A stretch of DNA of 64,000 bases from Streptacidiphilus sp. PB12-B1b (GTDB lineage Bacteria > Actinomycetota > Actinomycetes > Streptomycetales > Streptomycetaceae): the NCBI RefSeq assembly GCF_014084125.1, contig NZ_CP048405.1, positions 3,596,001-3,660,000 of the forward strand, in the 5' to 3' direction. Below, piece after piece: positions 5,664 through 61,392 of this stretch; the first letter of the stretch is position 1; each line of letters opens with the position of its first letter. The position numbers and the translations under genes were made by a program. The notes beneath the pieces are model-generated. The model was given only the letters and a program-made list of their open reading frames with translations, searched no databases and was not told the origin of the DNA.

Positions 5664-18863
<13,200 letters not shown>

Positions 18864-51925: not shown

Positions 51926-52795
51926 GTGGCCACCTCCCTGCTGCTCTGCGGCGACCCCCTGCGCTCCACCCGCTGCGACCCGTACCTCGCCGGGCAGGCC
52001 GCCGCCGCCCGGGCCCTGGGGGCCGTGGTGGCGCTGCTCGACCATGACGCCCTGCTCGCCGGGGACGCCGCCGGGGCGGTCCGCCGGGTGCCGCGCGACC
52101 TGGGCCCGCTGTGGTACCGGGGCTGGATGATCCCCTCCGCCCGCTACCGCGAGCTGGCCGAGGCGCTCGCCGCGCGCGGCGCCCGGCTGTGCACGACCGC
52201 CGAGCAGTACCGCACCGCCCACGAACTGCCCGGCTGGTACGCCGCCTTCGCCGGGGCGACCCCGGCCGGCAGCTGGCTGGCCTGCGAGCCGTTCCGGGCC
52301 CCCGCGCCGGAGGCCCTGGCCCGGGCCGCCGCCGCGCTCCCGGCCGGGCCCGGGATCGTCAAGGACTACGTGAAGTCCCGCAAGCACGACTGGGACGACG
52401 CCTGCTACCTGCCGGATCTGGCCGACACCGCGGCCGTGCACGCCGTGGTCTCCCGCTTCGTGGAGTTGCAGGAGGAGTGGCTGGCGGGCGGCGTGGTGCT
52501 GCGCGCCTTCGAGCCGCTGCGGCGCGACCTCGGGGAGGCCCGGGTGTGGTGGCTGGACGGCCGCCCGCTGCTGACCACGGCCCACCCCGACACCCCCGCG
52601 CTGCGGCCCGAACCCGAACTGGACGGCGTCCAACCGCTGGTGGCCGCGCTGGGCTGCCGGTTCGTCAGCACCGACCTGGCCCGGCACGCCGACGGCAGGT
52701 GGCGGGTGGTCGAGGTCGGCGACGGGCAGGTCAGTGAACTGCCCCAGGGGCTGGATCCGGGCGTGCTGCTGGGGCCGCTGCTGGGCGCCGGCTGA
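51926..52795 (+). CDS. ATP-grasp domain protein (DUF4343-like)
   Basis: This 289-residue protein matches the ATP-grasp families annotated with DUF4343. The N-terminal half has WYRGWMIPSARYRELAEAL. The nucleotide-binding part carries GIVKDYVKSRKHDWDDACYL, FVELQEEWLAGGVVLRAFEP, ARVWWLDGRPLL and a metal-binding end VVEVGDGQVSELP. ATP-grasp enzymes usually ligate a carboxylate to an amine; the substrate here is unknown. GTG 51926 is chosen because the sequence before it (to 51863) lacks family similarity, although the ribosome site is weak. Confidence 0.78.
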   Translation: MATSLLLCGDPLRSTRCDPYLAGQAAAARALGAVVALLDHDALLAGDAAGAVRRVPRDLGPLWYRGWMIPSARYRELAEALAARGARLCTTAEQYRTAHELPGWYAAFAGATPAGSWLACEPFRAPAPEALARAAAALPAGPGIVKDYVKSRKHDWDDACYLPDLADTAAVHAVVSRFVELQEEWLAGGVVLRAFEPLRRDLGEARVWWLDGRPLLTTAHPDTPALRPEPELDGVQPLVAALGCRFVSTDLARHADGRWRVVEVGDGQVSELPQGLDPGVLLGPLLGAG

Positions 52796-53043: not shown

Positions 53044-54819
53044 TCAGCGGCCCGGGCGGGCGGCCGGGACCGCCTCCCAGTGGCCGACCAGCTCCGCGTA
53101 CAGCGGCGCCCCGGCCAGCAGCTCGGCGTGCGTGCCGATCCGCGGTGGGCCGCCGTCCAGCAGTAGGATGCGATCGGCCCGGCGGGCCGAGCTGATCCGG
53201 TGGGCCACCGTGACGACCGTGCCGGGGCGGTCGTGGAAGGCGTCCTCGGCGCGGGCCTCGGCGGCCGCGTCCAGATGGCAGGTGGCCTCGTCCAGGATCA
53301 CCAGCCGGGCCGTCGAGACGTAGGCCCGGGCCAGAGCGATCAGCTGCTTCTCGCCCGCGGAGAGCCCGGCCGGGTCGACCGGGGAGTCCAGCCCGCCCAG
53401 TCGGGCCAGCGTGGCGCCCAGCCCGAGGCGCTCGGCGGCCTCGGCCAGCGCCCGGTCGGCGGCGCCCGGGGCGAGGTAGCGCAGGTTCTCCCGCAGCGTC
53501 CCGGCGAAGACGTAGCCCTCCTGCGGCAGCAGCACCCGGGCCCGGTGCAGCTCCCGGGCCGGGATCCGGGGCAGCGGCACCCCGCCGAGTCGGACGCTGC
53601 CCCGGTCCGGCGCGGTGATCCCGGCCAGGATGTCGGCCAGGGTGGACTTGCCGATGCCGGAGGGCCCCACCACGGCCAGGTGCTCGCCGGGGGCCAGGAA
53701 CAGGCCGAGGTCGCGCAGCACCGGCTCGGCCTGCGGCCCGTAGGCGAAGCTGACGTGCCGCAGCCGCAGCGAGCCGTCCGCCGGGCGGGCCGTGCCCTCC
53801 GGTTCGGCCCGGACGGCGGGCGGCCGCGCGGCCTCGGCCAGCCGCTCGGCGGCGACGCCCAACCGCAGGCAGGACGCCCCCACGCCCTGCACCAGCAGCC
53901 GCAGCGCCGGTTCCAGCGTGCTCACCGCGTAGGACAGCACGCCGACGACGGCGCCCGCGCTCAGCCCGTGCCGCACCAGCGCCGGAGCGGCCAGCAGGAT
54001 CAGCAGCAGCGGCACGTGCGCGCCGAGGGCGACCACGAGCCGGCGCACGGCGGCGGCCCAGGCCAGCGACCGGGCCGCGGCGGCCTGCGCCTCGACCGCG
54101 CGCAGCGCCTCCGCCTCGCTGCGCTCCCCAGCGCCCCAGGCGACCAGGTCGCGCAGCGCCTCCAGGGTGTCCACGGCCACCCGGGAGAGCCGCTCCTCGG
54201 CCAGGAAGGCGGCACGCTGGCGCCGGACCATGGTCGGCATCAGCGCCGCGAACAGGCACAGCGCCGCCACCAGCGGCAGCGCGATCAGCGGCACCACGGC
54301 CGGGGCCAGCGCCGCGGTGCCGCCGATCACGGCGGCGGCGGTCAGGGTGAACTGCCAGACGATCATCAGCTGTCCGGCCACCGAATCGCGCACCGCCTCG
54401 ACCTGCCGGGTCAGTTGGGCGACCACCACCGCGTCGGCGTGGGTGCGCGGGGCCGCCCGGTCGGCGGCGCGGCGCAGCGTCCCGCCGACCACGTCCCGCA
54501 GCAGCGCGTCGCGCATGGGCTCGACGATCTCGGCCAGCCAGGGGTAGGTCTGCCGTCCAGCCCACGCCCCGGCCACGGTCACCGCGGCGAACACGCCCAG
54601 CCACTCGGCCGCCGCGGCGGGCTGCCGACCCAGGAAGCCCCGGTCCACCGCGTACGCCAGGGCCTTGCCGCAGACCAGCGCGGGCGCGGCGGACAGCAGC
54701 GTCCACAGCGTGAGCAGCAGCACCGCGCGGCGGTTGCGGCGCAGCCCGTCCCGGAGCAGCCGCCGCACCGGCTCCCAGCGGCGGCGGCCCGGCGGCGGGG
54801 GCGGGTCGGTGCGGCGCAT
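53044..54819 (-). CDS. ABC exporter half-transporter, RamA/RamB-like
   Basis: This 591-residue fusion has an N-terminal membrane domain of about six helices (about 30-310) and a C-terminal ATPase. Walker A is GPSGIGKST. The Q-loop is present (LLPQEGYVFAG). The signature is LSAGEKQLIALARAY rather than LSGGQ. Walker B is LVILDEATCHLD with the catalytic Glu, and the H-loop is VAHRISS. It lies 13 bases after the partner transporter, so the two should form a heterodimer. The place in the cluster suggests export of the modified lanthipeptide, as for RamA/RamB beside ramC-ramS in Streptomyces. Confidence 0.9.
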   Translation of the reverse strand: MRRTDPPPPPGRRRWEPVRRLLRDGLRRNRRAVLLLTLWTLLSAAPALVCGKALAYAVDRGFLGRQPAAAAEWLGVFAAVTVAGAWAGRQTYPWLAEIVEPMRDALLRDVVGGTLRRAADRAAPRTHADAVVVAQLTRQVEAVRDSVAGQLMIVWQFTLTAAAVIGGTAALAPAVVPLIALPLVAALCLFAALMPTMVRRQRAAFLAEERLSRVAVDTLEALRDLVAWGAGERSEAEALRAVEAQAAAARSLAWAAAVRRLVVALGAHVPLLLILLAAPALVRHGLSAGAVVGVLSYAVSTLEPALRLLVQGVGASCLRLGVAAERLAEAARPPAVRAEPEGTARPADGSLRLRHVSFAYGPQAEPVLRDLGLFLAPGEHLAVVGPSGIGKSTLADILAGITAPDRGSVRLGGVPLPRIPARELHRARVLLPQEGYVFAGTLRENLRYLAPGAADRALAEAAERLGLGATLARLGGLDSPVDPAGLSAGEKQLIALARAYVSTARLVILDEATCHLDAAAEARAEDAFHDRPGTVVTVAHRISSARRADRILLLDGGPPRIGTHAELLAGAPLYAELVGHWEAVPAARPGR

Positions 54820-54832
54820 CGGCGGTTCTCCC

Positions 54833-56620
54833 TCAGTCCTCGGGGTGGTGGAACAGCGCGCGGTAGTCCGCCAGGTGCCACAGTTCGGCGTGCGGGGCCA
54901 CGGCGCGGACGCGGCCGTCCTCCAGCCAGGCCACGGCGTCGGCGCGGGCGGCGACGCCCGCCCGGTGCGTGACCACCAGCCGGGTGCGGTCCCCGAGCAG
55001 CCGCTCCAGGGCGCGGCCCACCTGGGCCTCGGCGGCGGTGTCCAGGCTGGAGGTCGCGTCGTCCAGCACCAGCAGTCGACTGCCGGCCGCCAGTGCCTGC
55101 GCCAACGCCCGTGCCAGGCCCAGACGCTGGCGTTCGCCGCCGGACATGGGGGCCAAGTCGAGGGCGGTGCGCGCGCCCTCGGGCAGGCGGCTGACGAAGG
55201 GCTCGGCCTGCATCGCCCGGAGCGCCTCGCACACCAGGGCCGAAGCCGGTTCGCCCTCCGGCTGCCCGGTTGCGGCGGTTTCCGGGACCGGGGCGACCGC
55301 CTCCTCGACGGTTGCCCCGCACAGCCGGGGGTCGGCGAAGGCGTAGGCGACGGCGGCGCGCAGCTCCCTCGGGTCGACCCGCTCCAGCGGTGCGCCGTCC
55401 AGCAGGACCGCGCCCTCGTCCGGGTCCAGCAGTCGGCCCGCCAGCGCGGCCAGCAGCGACTTGCCCGAGCCCGAGCGCCCGACCAGGGCCAGGCACTGCC
55501 CGGCCGGGACGGTCAGCTCCAGCCGGTCCAGGACGGTCGTGCCCGAGCGGCGTACGCTCACCGCCCGGAACTCCAGCCGTCCCGGCCCCGGCGGCAGCGG
55601 CAGCATGCCCGCCGTCGGCAGCAGCCGGTCCAGTACCGACGCCAGCCGGGACGCCCCGGCCCGGGCCCGGGCCAGCCCCAGCAGGCTCTGCGCGTTGCCG
55701 AAGAAGCTCAGCCCCACGGTGGCGTAGCCGAGCGCGGCGACCAGGCCGCCGGGGGTGAAGCCGCCGGTGGCGACCCCGTACCCGGCCACCGCCAGCACCG
55801 CCACCTGGGTAGCCGGGGCCAGCAGCGAGGTGTACCAGGCGATCCGGCGCTGGCCGTCCCACAACGCCCGTCCGCTGCGCGACAGTTGCGGCACGGGTTG
55901 GAGCACCCGCTCGATCTCGGCGTCCACGGTGCCGGAAGCGGCGATGGTGCGGATGCCCGCCAGGGCGTCCAGCAGCCGTGCGGCGACCGCCGCCTGGCCC
56001 TGCTGGTAGCCCACCACCAGGCCGGTGGTGCGCCGCAGGTAGCCCCGGACCAGCAGGTAGCAGGCGGGCGCGGTGACCAGGAAGGTCACCGCCAGCAACG
56101 GATCGAGCAGCCCCAGTGCGACCACCGCCCCCACCGACAGGGCGAGTTGCGAGAGCGAGTAGACCACCGAGGGCGCGGCGGTGGCCGCTTCGGCGGTGCT
56201 GCCGGTCAGCCGGGCCACCAGGTCGCCGGTGGAAGGGAGTTCGGCAGCGAACGGCCCGGCCGCCAGGGTGTGCCGGACGAACGCGGAGCGCAGGAAGGCG
56301 GTGGCGCCGGCCGTGGTGTACGGGTCGGCCAGCTGGGTGAGGGTCTCGGCCGCCACCAGCACCGCCAGCGTCACGAAGAAGGGCAGGCAGGGCCCGGTGC
56401 TGCGACCGGCCAGCACGCCGTTGACGCCCCGGGCCAGGGTGATCGGCAGGGCCAGCGTGGCCGCCGTCCCGGCCAGTACCGCCGCCGCCAGCGTCAGCGG
56501 CCACCGCGGCTGCCGCCGGGCGACCCGTCGCAGCAGCCGGTCCGCCGGGCGCAGGTCGGCGCGCGCCCCCGGAGCGCCGGAGCGCGGCGGGAGCGGCCGG
56601 GGCGGCGCGGTGCTGCGCAT
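54833..56620 (-). CDS. ABC exporter half-transporter, RamA/RamB-like, degenerate catalytic site
   Basis: This 595-residue half-transporter has an N-terminal six-helix region and a C-terminal ATPase with Walker A GRSGSGKSLL, signature MSGGERQRLGLARAL and Walker B RLLVLDDATSSLD. Here Asp stands where the catalytic Glu usually follows. The Q-loop position reads YAFADPRLCG with no Gln. Together with the Glu-bearing partner gene this fits an asymmetric heterodimeric exporter with one weakened ATP site. It follows the lanthipeptide precursor after two hairpins, which would set its expression lower than the precursor's. Confidence 0.9.
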   Translation of the reverse strand: MRSTAPPRPLPPRSGAPGARADLRPADRLLRRVARRQPRWPLTLAAAVLAGTAATLALPITLARGVNGVLAGRSTGPCLPFFVTLAVLVAAETLTQLADPYTTAGATAFLRSAFVRHTLAAGPFAAELPSTGDLVARLTGSTAEAATAAPSVVYSLSQLALSVGAVVALGLLDPLLAVTFLVTAPACYLLVRGYLRRTTGLVVGYQQGQAAVAARLLDALAGIRTIAASGTVDAEIERVLQPVPQLSRSGRALWDGQRRIAWYTSLLAPATQVAVLAVAGYGVATGGFTPGGLVAALGYATVGLSFFGNAQSLLGLARARAGASRLASVLDRLLPTAGMLPLPPGPGRLEFRAVSVRRSGTTVLDRLELTVPAGQCLALVGRSGSGKSLLAALAGRLLDPDEGAVLLDGAPLERVDPRELRAAVAYAFADPRLCGATVEEAVAPVPETAATGQPEGEPASALVCEALRAMQAEPFVSRLPEGARTALDLAPMSGGERQRLGLARALAQALAAGSRLLVLDDATSSLDTAAEAQVGRALERLLGDRTRLVVTHRAGVAARADAVAWLEDGRVRAVAPHAELWHLADYRALFHHPED

Positions 56621-56692
56621 CGTGGCTCCTCCGTGGCGGTGCGCCGGGTCCGGCCGTGGATCGGGACGTTCCGGATGGGTAGGCTGGAAGAC

Positions 56693-56727
56693 GCCGGTCC
56701 GGGCGGATTGAGACCGCCCGGACCGGC
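56693..56727 (-). terminator. Hairpin downstream of the lanthipeptide precursor (second of two)
   Basis: A perfect 14-bp stem (GCCGGTCCGGGCGG at 56693-56706 with CCGCCCGGACCGGC at 56714-56727) has a 7-base loop. It lies between the precursor and the transporter genes. A partial terminator or 3' stabiliser after the precursor gene is a common way to make more precursor than transporter mRNA. Confidence 0.7.
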
Positions 56728-56752
56728 TCTGTTCCCGCCTGTCTCGCTCTCA

Positions 56753-56772
56753 GCGGGCCGCGCGCGGCCCGC
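56753..56772 (-). terminator. Hairpin immediately downstream of the lanthipeptide precursor (first of two)
   Basis: A perfect 20-base self-complementary sequence (10-bp arms, GCGGGCCGCG and its complement) starts 9 bases after the precursor stop on the minus strand. With the next hairpin at 56693-56727 it makes a double stem-loop in the 161-base gap before the transporter gene. Confidence 0.65.
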
Positions 56773-56781
56773 GGGAGGGAA

Positions 56782-56907
56782 CTACAGGCACAGCAGGGTG
56801 CTGACGGTGCTGTTGGTGCAGTTGACGGCGCTCAGGGTGCTGAGCACGGACTGGTACTCGGTGCTCTCCTCGGGGGATTCGAGCGCCTGCAGGCTGAGGA
56901 TGGACAT
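56782..56907 (-). CDS. ramS: Class III lanthipeptide precursor peptide (SapB/AmfS-like)
   Basis: This 41-residue peptide is too short for normal gene calling. The leader starts MSILSLQALESPEE; its ILSLQ matches the hydrophobic [I/L]xxLQ recognition motif of class III leaders such as RamS and AmfS. The core (about 20-41) contains two Ser-x2-Ser-x3-Cys motifs: Ser23, Ser26, Cys30 and Ser33, Ser36, Cys40, ending Leu41. These are the same spacings as in SapB and predict two labionin- or lanthionine-type rings. Thr and Asn fill the gap between rings. ATG 56907 has GGGAG upstream. The gene sits between the LanKC synthetase and the two exporter genes, the ramCSAB order. The mature peptide is expected to be an amphiphilic surfactant aiding aerial growth, by analogy only. 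Confidence 0.88.
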   Translation of the reverse strand: MSILSLQALESPEESTEYQSVLSTLSAVNCTNSTVSTLLCL

Positions 56908-57031
56908 GATGGTCTCCCAACGGTCGGTGGTGCTGGTTTCCCGGCAGGGCTGCCGGAACTCGTGGGCGGCGGCGGGTGCCGTCGCGGTGGGGATCGGCCC
57001 GGTGGGGCCGTGGCCGCGGCGCGGTGGGCGC

Positions 57032-59563
57032 TCAGCGGGCCGCGGGGGAGGGCGTCCAGAAGGGCAGCGCGGGGACGTCCGCCAGTGCGGCGCCGACGCC
57101 CAGCAGCACCCCGGCCGAACCGGTGGCCAGGTCCATCGACAGTCGCAGCAACTGCTCTCCGGGGAAGGCGACATGGCCCTGGTAGGGCACCATGTGCCAG
57201 GTCAGCCGCTGAATGTGACGGCGGATCACCGACCGGTGCCGGGCGGTGCCGTCCTGCAGCTGGGCCAGGTGGGCGATCAGCCCCGCGCGGCCGTTGAACA
57301 GCCCGGACTGGACCACGAACTCGGGCTCGGCGGCCCGCCGGATCTGCTCCAGGCTCTGCCGCCAGGGCTCCTCGGGACGGTACGCCAGGTAGTCGTGCAG
57401 CACCGCGCCGATCCCGGCGCTGCCGGACTCCAGGTAGGGCAGCACCCGTGCGCCCTCGTCCACCTGGAGCGTGCCGTCCTCGGCGACCACGCAGCGGGCC
57501 AGGTCGCGGTCGAGCGCCTCCCGGGCCAGGTCGAGCAGGCCGGTGTCGCCGGTGCGCTCGAACAGCCGCAGGAAGAACAGGGCCGCGCCGCTGCCGCCGC
57601 GCATCAGTCCCGCCGCCGCCCGGCCGCCGGCCGTGGGCGGCGGGCCGCCGCCCAGCCGGTCGGCGACGTCCGTGGCGGCGTCCAGCAGCCCGCGCTCGCC
57701 GGTGCTCCCGGCGAAGTGCAGCAGGGTCAGCCCGACTCCGGGCAGGCCGCCGGCCAGATCGCTGCCCGGGTCCTCCGCCACCCGGTCCAGCAGCTGGTCC
57801 AGCAGGTTCAGCGCCTCCTTGCCGCGCCCCAGCAGGTCCAGGGCGTAGGCGACGCCGTGCGAGCCGAGGTACAGACCGGGCCGCGCGCGCTCCCGCCCGA
57901 CGGCGTCCACCAGCCACTGCACATGCTCCGGATCCGCCCCGGCGCCCGCCACGGACAGGGCGTACAAGACCCCGGCCGCGCCGTAGGCCAGGCCCAGCGG
58001 GCTGTGGGTGAACTGGCCGGGATCGCCGGGGAACAGCCGGTCGGCGCGTTCCGGGGTGGCGCTGGCGGTGATGGCGGCGGCCAGCGAGTCGCGCAGGTGC
58101 GGCCAGCTCGCCGGATCGCCGTCCAGCAGCAGCTCCAGCCGGGCGGACCGCTCCGGCTGTCGGCCTGACGCCGGATCCGCCGGGGCGCCCGGCTCCGTGG
58201 TCAGGCCGAAGCGTCGGCGCGCGGCCCGGGCGAGCTCGGGCGCCTTGCCCGGGTCCAGCGCGATCAGCGGCACCAGCGGCAGGAAGATCCACAGCCGCAG
58301 CGCGGCCAGCGCGTACTCGTCCACGGCGTAGCCGGTGACGTCGGCCGGGGCGGCGAAGCCGGCCGCTCCCAGCGCCGGACGGAGGAACTCGTCGGCGGGG
58401 GAGGCCAGTTCGAAGTCGATGAAGGCCACCCGGCCGTCCGGGCGGACGATCAGGTTGCGCGGGTGGAGGTCGCCGAAGACCACGCCCCGGGCGTGGATGG
58501 CCCGCAGCCCCTCCTCGACGGCCGCCATCACCCGCAGTGCCTCCTCGCGGTAGGCGGCCACCGTGTGCTCGTCGGTGTCGGGGTGGACCAGCGGGTACCG
58601 CTGCCCGAACCAGAGGTTCAGCGGGACGCCCTCGATGTACTCCTGCACCAGGAAGTCGTGCTCCCAGGCGGTGAGGTGGCCCAGCTCCTCGGGGACGGCG
58701 TCCACGCCGCGCAGCCGCCGCAGGATGTCCCGCTCGCGGCCGAGGCGGCACACCGCGTCCTCGCCGCGCTGGTCGAGTCCGGCGTGCGGACGGGCCTCCT
58801 TGAGGATGACCCGCTGCTCCCCGCCGAGCGGCACGGCCAGGTAGATGCCGCCGCCGTTGGAGAAGTGCAGGGCGCGCTCGATGGTGTAGGGGAAGGCGGC
58901 CGTGCTGTCGGTGCCGTGGCCGGCCAGCGCCGGGGCCAGCACCTCCGGCACCGGGGCCCACGGCGGCACCTCGAAGACCGCGCGGCGCACGTCCGGGCGC
59001 AGCCGTCCGGAGGGCTCGCGCAGCGCCAGCACCAGTTCGCCGGTCTCGGAGCGGCAGTACAGCTCGGTGAATCCGCCGTAGCGCAGGTACAGCGGACCGC
59101 TGCCCCAGCGCAGGTCGCTGAGGATGTACGGTCCCGGCTGCCCCTCCAGTGCGGTGCCCAGGTCGTCCAGACATCGGCGCAGGACCTCGTCGTCGACCGG
59201 GTAGAGGGCCATGAACTTGCCGCTGGAGCCTCGGGCGGCGTACTTGCCGTTCTGCGTCTGCACCAGCGCCGGGCTGCGCAGGAACTTGAACGCCACCCGG
59301 TGTTCGAAGCAGTAGGCGCGGACGACGGCCAGGATCTCCTCGGCGTTGCCCAGGCAGGCGGAGACGTGGATCTTCCAGCCCTGGTCGGGCAGGGCCTGTC
59401 CGACCGGGTGGAGGGCGACCCACACCTCCTGCGGGTTGCGCAGCCAGCCCTGCGGCAGCGGCTCGACCGCCGCCGGGAACTCCTCGACCGCGCTCCAGCG
59501 GACCGGTGAGTCGTAGAACAGTCTGTCGGCATAGGAGTATGCCTCGTACCGCATGTCCATCAT
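57032..59563 (-). CDS. ramC: Class III lanthipeptide synthetase (LanKC, RamC/AmfT-like)
   Basis: This 843-residue tri-functional enzyme phosphorylates Ser/Thr of the precursor, eliminates phosphate to dehydro-residues and cyclises them with Cys. The lyase-like N-terminus spans about 1-200 (MRYEAYSYADRLFYDSPVRW region). The Ser/Thr-kinase-like domain covers about 215-440, with VILKEARPHAG (Lys), FLVQEYIEGVPLN, the catalytic loop GVVFGDLHPRN near 362 and IDFELA near 382 (Glu in place of Gly of DFG). The LanC-like cyclase domain covers about 510-843 and lacks the zinc Cys-Cys-His set, the mark of class III. ATG 59563 follows GAGGGGAC. The precursor gene begins 124 bases downstream. Confidence 0.95.
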   Translation of the reverse strand: MMDMRYEAYSYADRLFYDSPVRWSAVEEFPAAVEPLPQGWLRNPQEVWVALHPVGQALPDQGWKIHVSACLGNAEEILAVVRAYCFEHRVAFKFLRSPALVQTQNGKYAARGSSGKFMALYPVDDEVLRRCLDDLGTALEGQPGPYILSDLRWGSGPLYLRYGGFTELYCRSETGELVLALREPSGRLRPDVRRAVFEVPPWAPVPEVLAPALAGHGTDSTAAFPYTIERALHFSNGGGIYLAVPLGGEQRVILKEARPHAGLDQRGEDAVCRLGRERDILRRLRGVDAVPEELGHLTAWEHDFLVQEYIEGVPLNLWFGQRYPLVHPDTDEHTVAAYREEALRVMAAVEEGLRAIHARGVVFGDLHPRNLIVRPDGRVAFIDFELASPADEFLRPALGAAGFAAPADVTGYAVDEYALAALRLWIFLPLVPLIALDPGKAPELARAARRRFGLTTEPGAPADPASGRQPERSARLELLLDGDPASWPHLRDSLAAAITASATPERADRLFPGDPGQFTHSPLGLAYGAAGVLYALSVAGAGADPEHVQWLVDAVGRERARPGLYLGSHGVAYALDLLGRGKEALNLLDQLLDRVAEDPGSDLAGGLPGVGLTLLHFAGSTGERGLLDAATDVADRLGGGPPPTAGGRAAAGLMRGGSGAALFFLRLFERTGDTGLLDLAREALDRDLARCVVAEDGTLQVDEGARVLPYLESGSAGIGAVLHDYLAYRPEEPWRQSLEQIRRAAEPEFVVQSGLFNGRAGLIAHLAQLQDGTARHRSVIRRHIQRLTWHMVPYQGHVAFPGEQLLRLSMDLATGSAGVLLGVGAALADVPALPFWTPSPAAR

Positions 59564-59918: not shown

Positions 59919-60803
59919 TCAGACCGGGACGACCACGACCGGGCAGTGGGCGTGGTGCAGCACCCGGCTGGTGACCCGCCCCAGCGGCAGTGCGAGCACG
60001 CCGCGGTGGCGGCGCGCGCCGACCACCACCAGGCCGGCCGGCTCCGAGGCGGCGACCAGCGCGGCCTCCGGCTCGTCCAGCCCCACCGCGGTGGCCACCG
60101 GCACCTCGGGGTACGCCTTGCGGGCGGCGGCCAGCGCCGCCTCCAGCTCCTCCGCCTCGCGCAGGTTGCGTTCGGCCTCCTCGTCCGGTGGGACCGCCAT
60201 GTGCCCCGGGTACACCTGGGGGGCCATCCAGGTCCGGATGGCGTGCACCGGCGCGCCGCGGCGCTCGGCCTCGGCGAAGGCGAACTCGACCGGCGCGGCG
60301 TCCTCGTCGGAGGCGACCCCGACCACGACCGGGCCCTGTTCGGGCGCCGCGCCGCCGTCCGGGGTGGGGCGCACCACGGTCACCGGGCAGCGCGCGTGCG
60401 CGACCAGCGCCTGGCTCACCGAGCCGAGGACCAGCGAGGCGAACCGGTTCATCCCCCGCGAGCCGACCACCACCAGCGCGGCCCGCTCGGAGCGCTCCAC
60501 CAGCCCGGCCACCGGGCCTTCGGTGACCAGCTCGGTGGTCACCACCAGGCCGGGGCAGCGCTCCCGGGCCCGGTCGGCGTAGGCCGCCAGCAGGTCGACG
60601 GCGGGCACCCGGGCCGCGGTCTCTGCCTGCTCCGGGTCCTGGCCCGCGCGGCGCAGCTTGGCACCGCTGACCGCGTGCACGATGTGCAGTTCGGCCTCCC
60701 GCATCGCGGCCGTGTCGGCGGCCAGATCCAGGGCCCGCTCGGCGAGCGGGGAGCCGTCGACGCCCGCGACGACGGGCGATCCGGGGGTGTAGGGGCGGTT
60801 CAT
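59919..60803 (-). CDS. Tandem universal stress protein (two UspA domains)
   Basis: This 294-residue cytosolic protein has two UspA domains. The first starts VVAGVDGSPLAERAL and ends with the ATP-binding loop VVVGSRGMNRFASLVLGSVS. The second starts GPVVVGVASDEDAAP and ends VVVGARRHRGVLALPLGRVT, a version with altered ATP-loop residues. Tandem Usp proteins are widespread in actinobacteria and linked to hypoxia or dormancy. The ATG follows AAGGAGA. It is upstream of the lanthipeptide operon in the same direction but separated by 355 bases. Confidence 0.93.
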   Translation of the reverse strand: MNRPYTPGSPVVAGVDGSPLAERALDLAADTAAMREAELHIVHAVSGAKLRRAGQDPEQAETAARVPAVDLLAAYADRARERCPGLVVTTELVTEGPVAGLVERSERAALVVVGSRGMNRFASLVLGSVSQALVAHARCPVTVVRPTPDGGAAPEQGPVVVGVASDEDAAPVEFAFAEAERRGAPVHAIRTWMAPQVYPGHMAVPPDEEAERNLREAEELEAALAAARKAYPEVPVATAVGLDEPEAALVAASEPAGLVVVGARRHRGVLALPLGRVTSRVLHHAHCPVVVVPV

Positions 60804-60940
60804 GGCTGTCTCCTTGCCGGTGCTGGGTGGGACCGGTCACGCGGCTGCACCCGGAACGGGCTGCGCCCCGTACTTCCACTGTGCCCGCGAATCCCGGTGC
60901 TCGCACAGGCCCGTCCGGCCCCACCCGTCACCCGGCGGGC

Positions 60941-61342
60941 TCAGTTGAGCAGCTTGTCCTTGGCCCGCTGGAACTCCTGCTCGGTGATGGCCCCGGACGC
61001 CTTGAGATCGGCCAGCCGGGCCAGTTCGTCGACGTGGCCGGCCGCCCCGGCGGCTGAGGGCCCCGCGGCGTCCCGGACGTACTGCTTGAACGCCGCGTCG
61101 GCCTTCTGGGCCTGCTCCAGGTCGCGCTGGCCCATGGAGCGGCCACGGAAGATGACGTACAGCAGCACGCCCAGGAACGGCAGGATGATCACCAGCACGA
61201 TCCAGCCCGCCTTGCCCCAGCCGCTCATGTCGTGGCTGCGGAAGATGTCCGCGAGCACCTTGAAGAGCAGGAAGAACCACAGGATCCACAGGAACAGCTC
61301 GAGCATGGTCCAGAAGATGTCCAGCAACGGATAGTTCGTCAT
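60941..61342 (-). CDS. SHOCT domain membrane protein with PLDc_N-like N-terminus
   Basis: This 133-residue protein has two membrane helices (about 8-30, LELFLWILWFFLLFKVLADI, and 44-65, GWIVLVIILPFLGVLLYVIF) around the motif RSHDMSGWGKAGW. That is the PLDc_N-like layout. The C-terminus is a SHOCT helix pair (LARLADLKASGAITEQEFQRAKDKLL), common in small actinobacterial membrane proteins. I prefer ATG 61342 over the GTG at 61348 because GGCGGGAG is then well spaced. The role is unknown. Confidence 0.9.
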   Translation of the reverse strand: MTNYPLLDIFWTMLELFLWILWFFLLFKVLADIFRSHDMSGWGKAGWIVLVIILPFLGVLLYVIFRGRSMGQRDLEQAQKADAAFKQYVRDAAGPSAAGAAGHVDELARLADLKASGAITEQEFQRAKDKLLN

Positions 61343-61392
61343 GGTCACTCCCGCCGTTCGGCCCGCAGCAGTGAGCGGGCTGTCGAAACAGG

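What the first reader, a model, noticed from the sequence alone, without database searches (positions are those of the whole stretch)
56782..59563. SapB-like class III lanthipeptide locus with an easily missed 41-residue precursor
A LanKC synthetase, a 126-base precursor gene, a double hairpin and two exporter half-transporters lie in ramCSAB order. The precursor core has two Ser-x2-Ser-x3-Cys motifs (Ser23/Ser26/Cys30 and Ser33/Ser36/Cys40) with SapB spacing. The residues inside and between the rings (AVN, TN, TLL) differ from the SapB sequence I recall, so the product would be a distinct peptide.
Basis: partly seen in the sequence, partly recalled or inferred. Interest (0 to 1): 0.78.

Follow-up and report, generated by a model that had tools for sequence, protein, structure and literature searches.

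The report
SapB-family class III lanthipeptide operon
This is a genuine four-gene operon for making and exporting a small ring-containing peptide related to SapB, the surfactant that helps streptomycetes raise aerial filaments; it belongs to a well-populated variant subgroup whose exact peptide I could not find described, so it is a new member of a known kind rather than something unprecedented.

Summary
On the minus strand, LanKC (57032-59563), a 126-base precursor gene (56782-56907, 41 aa), two hairpins, and two ABC half-transporters (54833-56620, 53044-54819) lie in ramC-S-A-B order. The precursor exceeds the cut-offs of Pfam RamS and NCBIfam SapB_AmfS_lanti; the synthetase exceeds the LanKC cut-off, not LanL's. 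Relatives show purifying selection (dN 0.09, dS 0.52), so the small ORF is a real gene. The core differs from SapB but is not unique: 44 of 298 genomes searched in the family carry the same core type, clearly separated by score from canonical RamS, and their LanKCs form a supported clade beside the RamC clade. PGAP already annotates a near-identical cluster on a Streptomyces megaplasmid. Whether the peptide is a morphogen is inferred. Interest is modest: a new member of a known kind.

The parts
57032..59563 (-). ramC-like class III lanthionine synthetase LanKC, 843 aa (lyase, kinase, metal-free cyclase)
   Evidence: NCBIfam NF038151 1038 bits (cut-off 575), Pfam RamC_N 3e-75; aligns to solved LanKC structures 9wop and 8sao
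56782..56907 (-). precursor peptide gene (ramS-like), 41 aa, core with two S-x2-S-x3-C motifs
   Evidence: Pfam RamS and NCBIfam SapB_AmfS_lanti above cut-offs; dN/dS about 0.15 against two relatives
56621..56781 (-). ramS-ramA spacer with two strong hairpins (stems of 8 and 14-17 bp), possibly a partial terminator or mRNA stabiliser
   Evidence: RNA fold z -4.4; strong hairpins also follow the precursor in related loci; no T tract
54833..56620 (-). ramA-like ABC exporter half-transporter, 595 aa
   Evidence: Pfam ABC_membrane and ABC_tran, no peptidase domain matched; 41-52% identical to RamA of related loci
53044..54819 (-). ramB-like ABC exporter half-transporter, 591 aa, 13 bases after ramA
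   Evidence: Pfam ABC_tran; 45-55% identical to RamB of related loci

Best explanation
A biosynthetic operon for a SapB/AmfS-family class III lanthipeptide. LanKC binds the leader (I-L-S-L-Q-A-L), phosphorylates and eliminates Ser23, Ser26, Ser33 and Ser36 to dehydroalanine, and adds Cys30 and Cys40 to form two rings (lanthionine plus Dha, or labionin). The RamA/RamB-like heterodimer exports the peptide; the leader is trimmed by a protease encoded elsewhere. The product most likely acts at the colony surface as a SapB-like hydrophobic morphogen during aerial growth. Shown: genes, family membership, conservation, gene order, catalytic residues. Inferred: co-transcription, ring chemistry, export by this pair, leader processing, morphogen role. 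The confidence given is for the biosynthetic identity; for the morphogen role alone I put about 0.6.
For: Family models; gene order; purifying selection on the precursor and an identical ring region in diverged relatives; invariant Ser23, Ser26, Cys30, Ser33, Ser36, Cys40 in the subfamily; LanKC aligned to ThurKC keeps the two lyase lysines (K107, K116) and the GDLHPRN and DFE kinase motifs, and has Phe-Asn where zinc cyclases have Cys-His (PMC10604976); the genome carries 8 chaplin matches above cut-off, as expected of an aerial-hypha former; this is the genome's only RamS above cut-off; SapB, AmfS, rochsin and durhapeptin of this family promote aerial hyphae (PMC13380574).
Against: No adjacent ramR-type gene, so developmental control is not shown; the core has Thr/Asn where SapB has Leu/Gly/Asp, and ring 1 carries an invariant Asn; no product or transcript data exist; 9 of 14 genomes searched in the same genus lack a RamS match, so the peptide is not essential in the genus.
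Confidence: 0.9

Rival explanations
1. The operon makes a class III lanthipeptide with a role other than morphogenesis (antimicrobial or signalling), having diverged from SapB along with its regulation.
For: LanKC clade separate from RamC; no ramR-type gene beside the subfamily loci searched; a copy sits on a megaplasmid between transposases; a subclade has a different exporter; three genomes hold this type as well as another RamS.
Against: Most genomes with this type have no other RamS match, as if it stood in for SapB; same two-ring spacing and a hydrophobic core.
Confidence: 0.3
2. The rings are labionins rather than SapB-type lanthionines (a rival on chemistry only, compatible with the best explanation).
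For: S-x2-S-x3-C is also the labionin motif (PMC7268733); rochsin A and durhapeptin have labionins (PMC13380574).
Against: SapB and AmfS have lanthionine; synthetase sequence does not predict the outcome (PMC13380574).
Confidence: 0.5
3. The 41-residue ORF is a chance frame and the real substrate of LanKC lies elsewhere.
For: It is very short, and GC-rich genomes hold many spurious frames.
Against: Family models, ribosome-binding site, dN well below dS, and the same place between lanKC and an exporter gene in the complete related loci examined.
Confidence: 0.01

Closest known systems
SapB (ramCSAB-ramR) of Streptomyces coelicolor
   Same: Gene order, LanKC plus RamA/RamB-like half-transporters, L-x-L-Q leader motif, S-x2-S-x3-C-x2-S-x2-S-x3-C core spacing
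   Different: Core residues (AVN/TN/TLL against LLL/GD/ITT), LanKC in a sister clade, no adjacent ramR-type gene
AmfS, rochsin, durhapeptin and avermipeptin-like class III peptides
   Same: Same broad SapB/AmfS family with tandem S-x2-S-x3-C motifs
   Different: Core sequences differ; the ring chemistry of AmfS, rochsin and durhapeptin is known, this one's is not
SapB/AmfS family lanthipeptide WP_138968545.1, Streptomyces sp. YIM 121038 plasmid pSSP121038
   Same: Precursor MSILSLQAMETPEETTEYMSVLSSLSAVNCTNSTVSTLLCL and the same four genes in the same order; LanKC 67% identical
   Different: On a megaplasmid flanked by transposases; here on the single 7.67-Mb contig

Membership tests
Class III lanthipeptide (LanKC) | LanKC synthetase above the curated score, and not above the LanL one | tested here: met
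   1038 bits against 575; LanL 395.7 against 650
Class III lanthipeptide (LanKC) | Cyclase without zinc ligands | tested here: met
   Ser and Phe-Asn at the positions of Cys and Cys-His (PMC10604976)
Class III lanthipeptide (LanKC) | Lanthionine or labionin rings in the product | not testable with these tools
   Needs mass spectrometry
SapB/AmfS family | Precursor matches RamS and SapB_AmfS_lanti models | tested here: met
   42.0 against 24.3 and 42.1 against 25 bits
SapB/AmfS family | Tandem S-x2-S-x3-C motifs and L-x-L-Q leader | tested here: met
   Read from the sequence; invariant in the subfamily
ramCSAB-ramR locus proper | ramC-S-A-B gene order | tested here: met
ramCSAB-ramR locus proper | ramR-type regulator next to ramB | tested here: not met
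   None in this window or beside the complete related loci; present in L045, L102, L104. The query was called RamR-type from its place next to ramB and its sequence, not from a family model. Nearest in this genome are 42-44% identical and unlinked
ramCSAB-ramR locus proper | LanKC inside the RamC clade | tested here: not met
   Separate clade, support 100/99, beside the RamC-type clade, 100/100
Aerial-growth morphogen | Restores or induces aerial hyphae | not testable with these tools
   Needs a bioassay

The most novel reading that the evidence does not exclude
A subfamily of SapB relatives that has taken SapB's place in many genomes of this family, with an Asn-Cys ring, loss of ramR linkage and, in one branch, a swapped exporter, making a morphogen of different chemistry or species specificity.
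Probability: 0.35. Interest if true: 0.5.

Novelty: new member of a known kind. Interest (0 to 1): 0.3.

Why it matters
SapB-type peptides help streptomycetes leave the substrate, and recent work (PMC13380574) finds them species-selective. This locus belongs to a widespread core type for which I found no described product in the open papers searched; coexpressing precursor and LanKC would show its ring chemistry, and a spot assay would show whether it stands in for SapB where SapB is absent.

Tried and rejected
Chance ORF: rejected by conservation. Class IV (LanL): score below cut-off. Cluster extended to the R2K ATP-grasp gene (51926-52795) or to the universal stress protein and SHOCT genes (59919-61348): neither has a relative in the related loci, so they are not counted as part of it. 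Literature searches for core and leader strings found no paper, which covers only open-licence main text. A genome-contig search with LanKC returned only two Streptomyces loci (45-48% identical), without a ramA, ramB or ramS relative nearby. The organism could not be named; membership of Streptomycetaceae is an inference from its relatives. A regular-expression motif scan of other LanKCs was too strict to conclude anything from its blanks. No structure was predicted, because sequence similarity to solved LanKCs was already decisive.

Full report
Observation. The window's minus strand holds LanKC (57032-59563), a 41-residue precursor (56782-56907), a spacer with two strong hairpins, and two ABC half-transporters (54833-56620 and 53044-54819), in ramC-S-A-B order. 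All four genes have a plausible ribosome-binding site, no TTA codon, and third-position GC of 0.94-0.98. The precursor is the only frame in the window with the tandem S-x2-S-x3-C pattern.

Identity. The precursor scores 42.0 bits against Pfam RamS (cut-off 24.3) and 42.1 against NCBIfam SapB_AmfS_lanti (cut-off 25); the synthetase scores 1038 bits as LanKC (cut-off 575) and fails LanL. Aligned to the solved ThurKC, LanKC keeps both lyase lysines and the kinase motifs and lacks zinc ligands, with Phe-Asn where ThurKC has Phe-Asp (residue roles from PMC10604976). No peptidase domain was matched in the transporters, so leader removal probably comes from elsewhere (inference).

Is the small gene real? 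Compared with two relatives, dN is 0.086-0.098 and dS 0.52-0.67, with 12 of 19 and 14 of 22 mismatches at third codon positions. The last 17 residues (LSAVNCTNSTVSTLLCL) are identical in this genome, G026, G056, G152, G182, G275 and a Streptomyces megaplasmid.

Relatives. A profile of ten such precursors splits the family sharply: 44 of 298 genomes score 56.8 bits or more, and the next scores 34.4. Pfam RamS finds a match in 161 of the 298. Only three of the 44 (G075, G242, G275) hold a second RamS at another place, while G206 has a tandem duplicate. LanKCs of the subfamily form a clade (support 100/99) beside the RamC-type clade (100/100) in a tree of 37 proteins. Within it, this genome, G026 and G046 carry the RamA/RamB pair, while G002, G007, G014, G048 and G057 show a single half-transporter, only about 28-36% identical to RamA or RamB. 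Since G046 branches at the base of the single-transporter group, the pair looks ancestral (inference).

Regulation. Canonical-type loci (L045, L102, L104) have a RamR-type gene next to ramB; none of the seven complete subfamily loci searched has one in its stretch of about 20 kb. The nearest RamR-like proteins in this genome are unlinked and 42-44% identical. Across genera, no neighbour other than the ram genes is shared among the loci (G002 and G007, close relatives, share more), which sets the limits at 53044-59563.

Mechanism and function. The best reading is a SapB-like surface peptide: four Ser dehydrated, two rings closed on Cys30 and Cys40, exported by the RamA/RamB-like pair. Rings may be lanthionine as in SapB and AmfS or labionin as in rochsin and durhapeptin; neither the motif nor the synthetase sequence decides (PMC7268733, PMC13380574). 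The core is hydrophobic (GRAVY 0.92 for the ring region, against 0.48 for a SapB core), and the genome has chaplins, which fits a role in aerial growth, but that role is inferred.

Novelty. A near-identical cluster is already annotated as SapB/AmfS family on pSSP121038, and the family counts over 4,000 sequences (PMC13380574). I found no paper with this core among open-licence texts. It is a new member of a known kind, of modest interest; the subfamily as a whole, with its altered regulation and exporter, is the more interesting object.

Noticed in passing
window 5-25130 (+): Modular type I polyketide synthase genes; the 4399-aa protein at 5664-18863 has three ketosynthase and three acyltransferase stretches.
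   Followed up: partly
window 51926-52795 (+): R2K-clade ATP-grasp protein (Pfam R2K_3, 1.1e-45) convergent with ramB; its N-terminus VATSLLLCGDPLRSTRC resembles a SapB core, taken as chance; no relative beside the related loci.
   Followed up: partly
G000:C1:5162941-5180054: Two further lanthionine synthetases in the same genome about 13 kb apart: one LanKC (738 bits) and one best matching LanL over the part scanned; a simple motif scan found no precursor.
   Followed up: partly
L043 (G013), about 10188-12716: LanKC of this subfamily split over frames, with a stop inside, in a genome of 76% completeness: sequencing error or decay.
   Followed up: no
L150 (pSSP121038), 8004-14727: Same four-gene operon on a linear megaplasmid with transposases on both sides, suggesting horizontal movement.
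   Followed up: no
G206:C739:34165-34511 (L132): Two tandem copies of the subfamily precursor.
   Followed up: no
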